Source: a bacterium (GTDB lineage Bacteria > Planctomycetota > UBA11346). Taken from it: a stretch of 28,833 bases of DNA. Of this stretch, positions 16,818 to 25,892 are shown in pieces. The position numbers were made by a program, and so were the translations under genes. The stretch is taken from NCBI GenBank assembly GCA_020049615.1, contig JAIFKN010000056.1, positions 1-28,833 of the forward strand. Reading direction: 5' to 3'. Every line of letters begins with the position of its first letter. Within the stretch, counting starts at the first letter, position 1. The notes beneath the pieces were generated by a model, which had not been told where the DNA came from, did not search any database, and saw only the letters and a list, made by a program, of their open reading frames with translations.

Positions 16818-16829
16818 GCCGATGATCCC

Positions 16830-16889
16830 CAGGACCGCGGGCTTCAGCCCGCGTCAAGGTCGCATCGCGGACTGAAGCCCGCGGTCCTG
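16830..16889. repeat. REP-like 24-nt inverted repeat between convergent gbsR-type gene and grpE
   Basis: Arms at 16830-16853 and 16866-16889 are complementary over 24 bases with one mismatch (a C against a T), around a 12-base loop. The core is a palindrome-like CGCGGGCTTCAGCCCGCG. It fills most of the 94-bp gap between two convergent genes, where it could serve as a bidirectional transcription stop. Its structure is that of an interspersed REP/BIME-type element. Other copies in the genome cannot be checked here. Confidence 0.75.
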
Positions 16890-16911
16890 CGAGCCGTCGG
16901 TCCTGAAGGTC

Positions 16912-17432: not shown

Positions 17433-18554
<1,122 letters not shown>

Positions 18555-18627
18555 GGGTTTCCAGGTGGGCGCGTCAGGATGGCGCACCCCGCCGCCTGTC
18601 TAGCACATGCTGGGCCATTGCGCCTCC

Positions 18628-18780
18628 ATTGCCCCAGGGGCTAGGGGTCAGGGGTTAGGGTCGTAGAGCGGCGTATCTTGGGACCACGGGGGGGTGGCGT
18701 CGCCGCGCGGATGGCTAAATTCCATGACCCCGATCCTGCACCACGACCCGAACCCCTAACCCCTAACCCCCAGGGGCAAT
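18628..18780. mobile_element. MITE-like 153-bp element with G-rich terminal inverted repeats (candidate)
   Basis: The left end (18628-18664) and the reverse complement of the right end (18743-18780) match in about 33 of 38 positions. Both begin ATTGCCCC and end TCGT, with an array of G-tracts between. The left end has tracts GGGG, GGGG, GGGG, GGG separated by CTA, TCA and TTA on the plus strand. The right end has five-, four-, four- and three-G tracts separated by TTA, TTA and TTC on the minus strand. Each is a four-tract G-quadruplex motif. The 78-bp centre codes for nothing visible. No target-site duplication was recognised, so mobility is only inferred. The right end reaches into the start codon of the FHA activator gene. 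Confidence 0.5.
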
Positions 18781-20125
18781 GAACCATATGCCCCTCCTGC
18801 GCATCATCGACGGCGTCGAGAAGGGCCGCGTCTTCGAGATCGACGCTGATCGCGTCACCCTCGGCCGCGAACCCGAGAACGCCATCTGCCTGCCCGACGT
18901 CAAGGCCAGCCGCGTCCATTGCGAGATCATCCGCAAGGAGGGGCGCTGGCACCTCAAGGACCTCGGCTCAAGCAACGGCACCTGGAGCGAAGACGGGCGC
19001 ATCGACTCGCTGCCGATGCAAGACGGCTCGACCTTCCGCATCGGCCGCACCTGGCTGCGCTTCGAGAGCAAGGCCCCGCAGACCATCTCCGAGCTCGCCT
19101 CGGTCGGCGGCGAGACCGTGCTGGGCCTCGACAAGACGCACACCAGCGGCCTGCTGCAGGTCGGCGGTGACCGGGTCAACGCCTACCTCGCGCTGCTGCA
19201 CCACATCGTGCTGCAGAGCAACGGTGCGCGCGGCCGCGACGAGCTGTTCGACATCCTCGATGACATCTCGGCCGACGCGCTGGAGGGCGACCGGGTGGCG
19301 GTGTTCCTGCCTGATGCCGACGGCTGGAGCCTATGGCCGCCGCACGAGAAGCGTCTGCGCGCGCGCTGGGGCGCCGCGCCCTTCGCCCGCACCCTGCTGG
19401 CCGAGGTCCGCCAGCGCCGCGAACCGCTGCTGGTGGCGATGCCGCCGAGCGTCAAGAGCGCCACTCCCGAGGCCGACTTCGCCCCGTCGCAGTCGATGGT
19501 CCAGTCCGGGGTCAACAGCGCGATGGCCGCGCCGCTGCGGCTGGGCGACGAGGTCCACGCCCTGCTGTACGTCGACCGCCTGAACGGGGCCAAGGCCTTC
19601 ACCCGCACCGATCTGGAGTTCCTCGCCGCAGTCGCCAACCAGCTTGCGGTGCAGCTGGCCAACACCCAGAAGGTCGCCCAGCTGACCGCCGAGGTCGAGC
19701 GTCTGGCGGTGGCGCCGCATCGCGCGGCGGTGCAGCTGGTCGGCGCTGATCCGGTGATGCAGACGGTGCAGGCCTTCGTCGCCCGCGCCGCCCCGACCAT
19801 GGCGCCGGTCCTGGTGCTGGGCGAGAGCGGCACCGGCAAGGAACTCGTCGCGCGCGCCGTGCACCAGCAGTCGAAGCGGGCCGACAAGCCGCCATCGCCG
19901 AGAATCTGGTCGAAAGCACGCTGTTCGGTCACGTCAAAGGGGCCTTCACCGGCGCCGACGAGACCCGGCCCGGCGTCTTCGAGCTTGCCGACGGCGCCAC
20001 ACTGTTCCTCGACGAGGTCGGCGAACTGCCGCTGGGTACCCAGGCCAAGCTGCTGCGCGCGCTGGAGCAGGGCGAGGTGCAGCGCGTCGGTGACAGCAGC
20101 CTGCGCAAGGTCGATGTGCGGGTGA
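18779..20125 (+). CDS. FHA-GAF-sigma54 (NtrC-type) activator, N-terminal part, reading frame broken
   Basis: Intended product: a sigma54-dependent transcription activator gated by phosphothreonine binding. The FHA domain occupies residues 5-100 (LGRE at 28-31, SRVH at 44-47, LGSSNGTW at 62-69). A GAF sensor domain follows (about 125-305, ending [17 protein letters not shown] [15 protein letters not shown]), then the start of the AAA+ domain with Walker A GESGTGKE at 348-355. After KRADKP (about residue 372) the frame departs into Ser/Arg/Pro-rich nonsense and stops at 20125. The rest of the AAA+ domain and the HTH lie in another frame from 19891. By comparison with NtrC relatives, the seven residues between 'KP' and 'AIAEN' (normally PFxAxNCA-like) are missing, implying a ~22-nt deletion. 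ATG 18779 sits on the inverted-repeat end; ATG 18788 is an alternative start. Confidence 0.82.
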
Positions 20126-20631
20126 TCGCGGCGACCAACCGCGACCTCGCCGGCGAGGCCAGGGCCGGCCGTTTCCGCGAGGACCTCTACCACCGCCTCA
20201 ACGTCCTGGTCGTCACCCTGCCGCCGCTGCGCGAGCGGCCGGGCGATATCGAGACGTTGATCGACCATTTCCTCGCGGAGTCGGCCCGGCGGCTGGGCCA
20301 GCCGGCCAAGCGCCTTGCGCCGGAGGCGCGCACCCTGCTGCTGCGCTACCCGTGGCCGGGCAATGTCCGCCAGTTGCGCAACGTCCTCGAGCGGGCCTCG
20401 ATCATGGCGGCCGGGCCGCAGATCCTGCCTGGCGACCTGCCCGCCGAGGTCGGCGCCTCCCCGGCGACGGTGCAGGTCGATGCGCCGATGGCCACGCTCG
20501 CCGAGGTCGAACGGACCCACATCCTGCGCGTCCTGGAACGCTGTGGCGGCAACAAGAAGCAGGCCGCCGACATCCTGGCGATCGACCGCTCAACCCTCTA
20601 CGCCAAGCTCAAGCAGTTCGGCCAGGGGTAA
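19891..20631 (+). pseudogene. Sigma54 activator, C-terminal AAA+ and HTH part, out of frame with its start
   Basis: About 246 codons continuing the NtrC-type activator: [20 protein letters not shown] with the sigma54-contacting GAFTGA loop at 19939-19956, Walker [11 protein letters not shown], the segment [20 protein letters not shown], sensor-type [20 protein letters not shown] and WPGNVRQLRNVLERA. The terminal Fis-type helix-turn-helix is VLERCGGNKKQAADILAIDR followed by STLYAKLKQF. There is no start codon at the break; the first in-frame ATG (20077) lies inside the AAA+ fold. Unless the break is an assembly error, no functional activator is made. The segment ends 44 bases before the kinase -10 box. 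Confidence 0.85.
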
Positions 20632-25811: not shown

Positions 25812-25892
25812 CTGGGAGGGTCGAGCACCAGCTCGACCACGGGGCGATTGCCTCCATTGCCACAGGGTCGAGCTGGCGCTCGACCCTCCCAG
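25812..25892. repeat. REP-like 27-nt inverted repeat between convergent lipM-like gene and ABC ATPase
   Basis: Arms at 25812-25838 and 25866-25892 are complementary over 27 bases with one mismatch, around a 27-base loop. The core GGTCGAGCTGGCGCTCGACC is itself nearly palindromic, so each arm can also fold on itself. The element exactly fills the 83-bp gap between two convergent stop codons. It looks like an interspersed extragenic palindrome and could act as a bidirectional terminator. The loop carries a sequence also found next to the 18.6-kb element. Confidence 0.75.

What the first reader, a model, noticed from the sequence alone, without database searches (positions are those of the whole stretch)
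18628..18780. Inverted pair of four-tract G-quadruplex motifs forming the ends of a MITE-like element between divergent dnaJ and an FHA activator
Both ends share the layout ATTGCCCC, N, four G-tracts with 3-nt loops, TCGT. The left copy is G-rich on the plus strand and the right copy on the minus strand, so each strand can fold a quadruplex, or the ends can pair into one long cruciform. The G-tract loops are mostly TTA-like, giving a telomere-like look that is unusual in a bacterial intergenic region. The element occupies nearly the whole promoter region of two stress/signalling genes, and its right end supplies the ATG of the activator, so it may influence both genes' expression.
Basis: partly seen in the sequence, partly recalled or inferred. 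Interest (0 to 1): 0.7.

Follow-up and report, generated by a model that had tools for sequence, protein, structure and literature searches.

The report
Hairpin insertion element with heptad ends
A short hairpin-forming DNA insert with repeated 7-letter ends sits between two genes of a planctomycete bacterium, and its relatives suggest that such inserts are gene-less cousins of elements that carry a small helical protein known from inserts in ribosomal RNA genes.

Summary
The inverted pair of capped, G-rich heptad arrays at 18628-18780 is real and far beyond chance. It is not a classical MITE. The capped end recurs at many sites in two congeneric genomes and a few in two further genomes, as outward-capped inverted arms whose interiors differ from copy to copy. 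Congener G003 has the same dnaJ/FHA gene pair without the element and with 148 nt less between the genes, so the window most likely carries an insertion. One copy in G002, with the same cap and heptad, encloses a gene of PF05635, the protein of 23S rRNA intervening sequences (IVP/S23p). IVP genes are associated with 7-nt arrays: 28 of 30 loci in this family against 2 of 19 Y1-transposase loci, and 12 of 15 plasmid loci (13 of the 15 cyanobacterial) against 6 of 188 control positions. Stretches from 20 IVP-free genomes had no such array. Best reading: a gene-less member of intergenic, IVS-like hairpin elements. Mobility, excision and quadruplex folding are inferred, not shown. The right end does not supply the activator's conserved start codon.

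The parts
18628..18635 (+). left cap ATTGCCCC
   Evidence: Same cap before G-heptads at 27 merged places in G002 and 37 in G004, and at a few in G001 and G018.
18637..18660 (+). left G-rich heptad array, four G-tracts, loops CTA, TCA, TTA
   Evidence: Period-7 repeat; quadruplex motif on + strand.
18661..18746 (.). spacer, 86 nt, with TCGT/ACGA at its two ends
   Evidence: only notable match to another copy is 11 nt, CTGCACCACGA, shared with L163 of G002.
18747..18771 (-). right G-rich heptad array, G on the minus strand, loops TTA, TTA, TTC
18773..18780 (-). right cap ATTGCCCC (reads GGGGCAAT on +)
18597..18607 (.). TGTCTAGCACA, conserved in G001 and G003 next to dnaJ, outside the element; possible dnaJ promoter part (inference)
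18779..18781 (+). in-frame ATG at the element's right end, upstream of the conserved start
18788..18790 (+). conserved start codon of the FHA-GAF-sigma54 activator
   Evidence: Homology with G001 starts at 18788; same start context in G002 and G003; domains.
17433..18554 (-). dnaJ (start ATG read at 18554)
   Evidence: Pfam DnaJ, DnaJ_C, DnaJ_CXXCXGXG.

Best explanation
The 153 bp are an insertion of a dispersed family of hairpin elements whose two ends are a constant cap (ATTGCCCC) plus inverted tandem 7-nt repeats. It is the gene-less form of intergenic elements that, in their full form, carry a gene for the four-helix-bundle IVP/S23p protein of 23S rRNA intervening sequences (IVSs). Shown by sequence: multi-copy ends in relatives, absence at the same gene pair in G003, mostly unrelated interiors, one IVP-bearing copy with the same cap and heptad, and a wider association of IVP genes with period-7 arrays. 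Inferred: the arms pair in RNA or single-stranded DNA; IVP made by full elements helps gene-less ones spread in trans; the two arms are written from a common template or copied from each other, so that arms agree while interiors do not; heptad numbers drift by slippage; in host RNA the stem is a substrate for RNase III, as in rRNA IVSs.
For: Capped ends: 36 exact hits in G002, 0 in 197 other genomes, 0 for the reversed control; the degenerate form is in 4 of 8 genomes searched. G003 has dnaJ and the activator side by side with 85 nt between start codons against 233 in the window, and no element. G002:C189 has cap and GGGGTTA arms around a PF05635 gene. Period-7 arrays near IVP genes: 28 of 30 family loci on either side and 19 of 30 on both (27 distinct stretches), against 2 and 0 of 19 Y1 loci and 0 of 11 chance-hit loci. 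Lag-7 test: 24 of 26 family loci, 11 of 28 phylum loci, 1 of 18 Y1 loci; upstream against inverted downstream flank of the same locus exceeds the 95% quantile of cross-locus pairs in 24 of 28 phylum loci, 5 of 18 Y1 loci. Plasmids: 12 of 15 loci against 6 of 188 positions. Arrays: 0 in 317 kb from 19 IVP-free genomes and 0 in 312 kb of G003; 21 in 388 kb from 20 IVP-bearing genomes, 7 of them positive; 39 in 355 kb of G002. By genome 8 of 21 against 0 of 20, p 0.003. L330: an IVP inside a 23S rRNA gene with such arms. Coxiella's IVS has tandem heptamers before its S23p gene and a 28-bp terminal stem (PMC4990558, passages).
Against: The bridge between this capped family and IVP is one IVP-bearing copy (G002:C189); two other IVP loci with GGGGTCC arms (L219, L233) lack the cap. 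G001 and G018 have 21 and 9 IVP matches but only 3 and 4 capped places. In the phylum sample 7 of 28 IVP loci have a perfect array on either side and 1 on both, and 17 of 28 fail the lag-7 threshold. The inverted-flank test gave 2 of 26 in family f1, where related loci raise the cross-locus values, and 5 of 18 for the Y1 control. On plasmids own-inverted similarity exceeds the cross-locus quantile in 6 of 15, and L319 has direct rather than inverted arrays. 13 of 20 IVP-bearing genomes showed no array in the stretch sampled, and many of those stretches, like 14 of 20 from G002, came from contigs already known to hold an IVP gene or an earlier hit; six G002 contigs picked without such knowledge gave 4 arrays in 85 kb. 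No correction for relatedness. The window's own genome is not held. No movement was observed.
Confidence: 0.6

Rival explanations
1. A REP/BIME-like family: short capped half-units that insert or duplicate one by one and end up as inverted clusters, moved by a Y1 (RAYT-type) transposase.
For: Half-units occur in tandem on each side, pointing outward, with variable spacers, as in BIMEs (recalled). Y1_Tnp matches exist in G001 (2), G002 (5), G004 (2) and G018 (10).
Against: Period-7 arrays near Y1 genes: 2 of 19 on either side, 0 of 19 on both. REPs do not usually vary by a changing 7-nt tandem unit behind a constant cap (recalled).
Confidence: 0.17
2. A classical MITE: an internally deleted copy of an insertion sequence with ATTGCCCC ends.
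For: Inverted ends, small size (median 93.5 bp over 28 extracted copies), many copies.
Against: Of 28 extracted copies, the 22 with spacers of 20-200 nt were compared: 231 pairs, mean score 6.48 against 6.05 for shuffled; 6 pairs exceed the shuffled maximum of 10, mostly leftover heptad or cap units by eye. No target duplication seen by eye. Most cap-to-cap stretches printed are too short for a transposase gene; a parent insertion sequence was not searched for systematically.
Confidence: 0.08
3. Slippage-grown simple repeats kept for regulation by quadruplex or cruciform, not insertions.
For: Rehm et al. 2015 describe quadruplex-forming heptamers in intergenic DNA, in Xanthomonas often as inverted pairs, and did not find them linked to mobile elements (abstract, passages and discussion).
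Against: A constant 8-nt cap is hard to get from slippage. G003 lacks about 150 bp at the site. At one ilvB/ilvN junction G002 has an IVP element and G018 a gene-less heptad pair, while G001 (two copies), G003, G004, G007 and G015 have neither.
Confidence: 0.1

Closest known systems
23S rRNA intervening sequences (IVS) with the S23p/IVP gene, e.g. Coxiella burnetii (PMC4990558, passages read)
   Same: Terminal inverted repeats forming a long stem; an IVP gene in the full form; tandem heptamers next to the gene; here also an IVP inside a 23S rRNA gene (L330) with heptad arms.
   Different: The window element lies between protein genes, has no gene, and has the ATTGCCCC cap; excision by RNase III is unknown here.
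GGGNATC / GGGGA(C/T)T heptameric quadruplex repeats of Xanthomonas and Nostoc (Rehm et al. 2015, PMC4692102)
   Same: G-rich 7-nt units, often four, intergenic, in Xanthomonas often as convergent inverted pairs.
   Different: Different unit; here a fixed cap, a site without the element in a congener, and an association with IVP genes, while the paper reports no link to mobile elements.
TAACTGA repeats of Beggiatoaceae and some cyanobacteria (PMC4679880, start of abstract and passages seen)
   Same: 7-nt tandem repeats dispersed between genes.
   Different: Almost all are direct repeats, read there as possibly regulatory; the passages seen mention no IVP.
REP/BIME/REPIN and MITE families (recalled)
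   Same: Short palindromic intergenic repeats in inverted pairs.
   Different: Interiors mostly unrelated between copies, unit changes by lineage, no matching transposase identified.

Membership tests
MITE | terminal inverted repeats | tested here: met
MITE | copies share internal sequence derived from one parent element | tested here: not met
   22 of 28 spacers compared, mean similarity near the shuffled level; 6 of 231 pairs above the shuffled maximum.
MITE | target site duplication | tested here: inconclusive
   None seen by eye at the window site or in the sites printed; no formal test.
REP/BIME with RAYT | association with a Y1 (RAYT-type) transposase | tested here: inconclusive
   Y1 genes present but period-7 arrays near only 2 of 19; the cap itself was not searched around them.
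23S rRNA IVS | located inside a 23S rRNA gene | tested here: not met
   The window element lies between dnaJ and an FHA activator; no Rfam hit in the window.
23S rRNA IVS | terminal stem from inverted repeats | tested here: met
   Predicted only.
23S rRNA IVS | IVP/S23p gene inside (optional in rRNA IVSs, recalled) | tested here: not met
   86-nt spacer in the window holds no such gene; present in the G002:C189 copy.
23S rRNA IVS | excision by RNase III | not testable with these tools
   Needs RNA work.
Heptameric G-quadruplex repeats | intergenic G-rich 7-nt tandem units able to form G4 | tested here: met
   Motif level only.
Heptameric G-quadruplex repeats | unit GGGNATC or GGGGA(C/T)T | tested here: not met
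   Units here are GGGGTTA, GGGGCTA, GGGGTCA, GGGGTTC.

The most novel reading that the evidence does not exclude
IVP genes define a widespread class of mobile hairpin elements that insert at gene junctions and into rRNA, whose ends are 7-nt (sometimes 8-nt) repeats written by a templated or fold-back copying process. The same cap and heptad surround unrelated interiors, and homologous IVP cores carry variant heptads. Many of the unexplained heptameric repeats of bacteria would then be gene-less products of such elements. (Lowered from 0.35 on re-check: the heptads of homologous cores are variants of one another, not unrelated.)
Probability: 0.3. Interest if true: 0.9.

Novelty: new variant of a known kind. 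Interest (0 to 1): 0.68.

Why it matters
The role of G-rich heptameric repeats and the function and origin of IVS elements are both called open in the papers seen (PMC4692102 discussion; PMC4990558 passages). A link between the two would give the repeats an origin and the protein a role in element spread, and both could be tested in ordinary laboratory bacteria.

Tried and rejected
Rejected: chance; a classical MITE; a known RNA family (window, no match; six IVP loci, only rRNA in L330); a simple sigma-70 promoter or terminator within 18540-18800 (none found). The idea that the cap is an ordinary enriched word of the genus was dropped: CATTGCCC is at expectation in 312 kb of G003 (3 seen, 2.4 expected). 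Still, one native CATTGCCC lies at the empty site of G003 and one upstream of the FHA gene in G002, so the cap may copy or prefer such a site. A search with the whole 153 bp in 198 relatives gave 18 genomes at E <= 0.01, with short pieces of an arm or, in a few, of the spacer, and no match to the whole element.

Limits of sampling. Capped places, merged by me from the lists: 27 of 29 in G002 were fetched (two GGGGGGC-type places, C27:11363 and C161:11981, left out) and 20 of 37 in G004. Five G001 and seven G018 regions were fetched, some picked; L188, L194, L195 and L196 showed no capped end. One search extracted 28 copies by fixed rules (16 from G002, 11 from G004, and the window). IVP loci: 30 of 41 matches had loci; three overlap others and were dropped, where one more had too short a flank. 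One search gave 29 new loci; L283 was left out of the tests as it lies at a contig edge; the loci are the best-scoring matches, not a random draw. Plasmids: 15 of 30 matching records were read; near-duplicates, partial matches, the four Riemerella records and some others were left out. Y1 controls: 19, 18. In one search my label said 18 IVP-free genomes; the list holds 19, and the genome-level test was redone. The gene caller is crude: 25 of 56 left ends and 29 of 56 right ends of capped clusters lie within 25 bp of a called gene end, and 6 of 56 clusters were flagged as inside a called frame; counts taken by hand from that output.

Literature searches. No title or abstract start in those listings ties IVP genes in general to heptad arrays; most subscription journals and all preprints are outside that library.

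Full report
What is there. Window 18628-18780 holds two arms that match in 32 of 37 aligned columns in inverted orientation. Each is a cap, ATTGCCCC, followed by a period-7 G-rich array. The cap-plus-array pattern is found nowhere else in the window and in none of 100 shuffles, and the two arrays are the only four-tract quadruplex motifs found in the window. As a single strand the element folds into one long hairpin: RNA -87.1 kcal/mol, z -5.1; DNA of the other strand -49.3 kcal/mol, z -6.8. Hairpin and quadruplex would compete for the same bases; only prediction was possible.

Setting. dnaJ runs left from 18554 and an FHA-GAF-sigma54 activator runs right (Pfam). The host is very likely a planctomycete: the nearest held genome, G001, has the contig of JALHRW010000052.1, a Planctomycetota MAG. 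The window's own assembly is not held. In G001 homology to the dnaJ side stops at 18619 and homology to the activator begins at 18788, on two different contigs, without the element. G003, of the same genus, has dnaJ and the activator side by side, at 71% protein identity each, with 85 nt between start codons against 233 in the window, and no element. Of the loci found with the activator, only G003's had dnaJ next to it. So the element is most simply an insertion in the window's lineage; loss in G003 is not excluded. The conserved start of the activator is ATGCCC at 18788. The ATG at the element's end (18779) is in frame but not conserved.

Copies elsewhere. The exact right-end pattern has 36 hits in G002 and none in 197 other relatives, control zero. 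A looser pattern finds it in G001, G002, G004 and G018, and not in G003, G008, G022 or G023. Behind the same cap the heptad differs: GGGGTTA in G002, GGGGTCC and GGGGGTT in G004, GGGGTTC and GGGGTCC in G001, mainly GGGGTCC in G018. Caps face outward, and extra half-units are stacked on each side in the same sense. By a crude gene caller, 25 of 56 left ends and 29 of 56 right ends lie within 25 bp of a gene end, and 6 of 56 clusters were flagged as inside a frame. Of 28 extracted copies the 22 with spacers of 20-200 nt were compared: mean pair score 6.48 against 6.05 for shuffled, with 6 of 231 pairs above the shuffled maximum of 10. By eye these are mostly leftover heptads or caps; one is an 11-nt match between the window and L163. 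That speaks against a MITE family spread from one parent.

The link to IVP. The G002:C189 copy has the same cap and GGGGTTA arms around a gene for PF05635, 23S_rRNA_IVP. PF05635 is found in G001 (21 matches), G002 (5), G004 (6) and G018 (9), and in none of G003, G007, G008, G012 or 14 control genomes. Perfect period-7 arrays lie within 700 bp of 28 of 30 of these loci (27 distinct stretches) on at least one side and 19 of 30 on both, against 2 of 19 and 0 of 19 for Y1-transposase loci and 0 of 11 for chance-hit G001 loci; other periods give 0 or 1. Of the two misses, L236 has 8-mer arrays by eye. Two IVP loci with GGGGTCC arms, L219 and L233, lack the cap. Across Planctomycetota 102 of 199 genomes have a PF05635 match. 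Among 28 best-scoring loci tested there, 7 have a perfect array on either side and 1 on both, and 11 pass a degenerate lag-7 test, against 1 of 18 Y1 loci. Upstream and inverted downstream flanks of the same locus resemble each other more than 95% of cross-locus pairs in 24 of 28 of these, in 5 of 18 Y1 loci, and in only 2 of 26 loci of family f1, where related loci raise the background. By eye many more of the phylum loci show degenerate inverted 7- or 8-mers. On plasmids (13 cyanobacterial loci, one Gemmatirosa, one Azospirillum) 12 of 15 IVP loci pass at 20 of 28 matches, against 6 of 188 evenly spaced control positions on four of the plasmids; the Gemmatirosa locus has 8-mers instead. There, own-inverted similarity exceeds the cross-locus quantile in 6 of 15. 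L330, from Azospirillum, is an IVP within a 23S rRNA gene with such arms.

Genome level. Degenerate period-7 arrays: 21 in 388 kb from 20 IVP-bearing genomes (7 of them positive), 0 in 317 kb from 19 IVP-free genomes, 0 in 312 kb of G003, and 39 in 355 kb of G002. Many of the IVP-bearing stretches, and 14 of 20 from G002, came from contigs already known to hold an IVP gene or an earlier hit; six G002 contigs taken without such knowledge gave 4 arrays in 85 kb. Counting genomes, 8 of 21 against 0 of 20, Fisher p 0.003, without correction for relatedness; the same test used a miscounted 19. About half of the arrays have an inverted partner within 700 bp by a strict test: 20 of 43 in G002 (split more finely than), 11 of 21 in the others.

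Arms and interiors. Homologous IVP cores, for example L226 and L240 (81% identical over 816 bp), carry variant heptads (TCGGCCA against GGCGTTC downstream), as do L234, L243 and L245 of G001, which share a leader with L220. These heptads are related to each other, so the core side shows drift rather than free exchange; the freer exchange is on the side of the gene-less copies. At one junction, ilvB/ilvN, G002 has an IVP element, G018 a gene-less heptad pair, and G001 (two copies), G003, G004, G007 and G015 have neither; G004 has a short 8-mer repeat there. This is what independent insertion at gene junctions would look like.

How it may work. I think arms are copied from each other, or from a common template, when the element is made, so that arms agree within a copy while interiors are free. 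IVP would act in trans on the stem. These steps are inferred. The known rRNA intervening sequences give the nearest precedent: in Coxiella a 28-bp terminal stem, an S23p gene, tandem heptamers that vary in number between strains, and RNase III cleavage in vitro (PMC4990558, passages). Rehm et al. (PMC4692102, abstract, passages and discussion) describe the closest repeats and leave their role open.

Verdict. Very probably a real insertion, an ordinary intergenic repeat at first sight, whose relatives point to a link between heptad repeats and IVP elements that I did not find stated in seven paper searches. The weakest joint is that only one IVP-bearing copy with this cap was seen.

Noticed in passing
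window 18779-20631: The activator reads in two overlapping frames (18779-20125 and 20077-20631), each with part of the sigma-54 domain, whereas G001 has one open frame of 635 aa; a frameshift or a sequencing error. Described only.
   Followed up: partly
window 25812-25892 and 16819-16900: Two other hairpins (37-nt arms 86% and 35-nt arms 83% complementary), REP-like, without heptads.
   Followed up: no
L220, L231, L232, L234, L240, L241, L243, L245: A conserved, strongly self-complementary leader of roughly 125 nt lies next to many IVP genes; L231, L234, L240 and L245 gave no Rfam match.
   Followed up: partly
L319, L325, L329: IVP genes sit between CRISPR genes on cyanobacterial plasmids: cas6/cas4 twice and cas10/cmr3-like.
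   Followed up: no
G001:C242, C173, C249, C285, C271, C284; G004:C183, C40: IVP matches occur as two copies in opposite orientation a few hundred bases apart.
   Followed up: no
G002 sample L351-L370: Several other heptad families besides GGGGTTA are dispersed in G002, such as GTTCGGC, CCAGCCT and GCTCAAA.
   Followed up: partly
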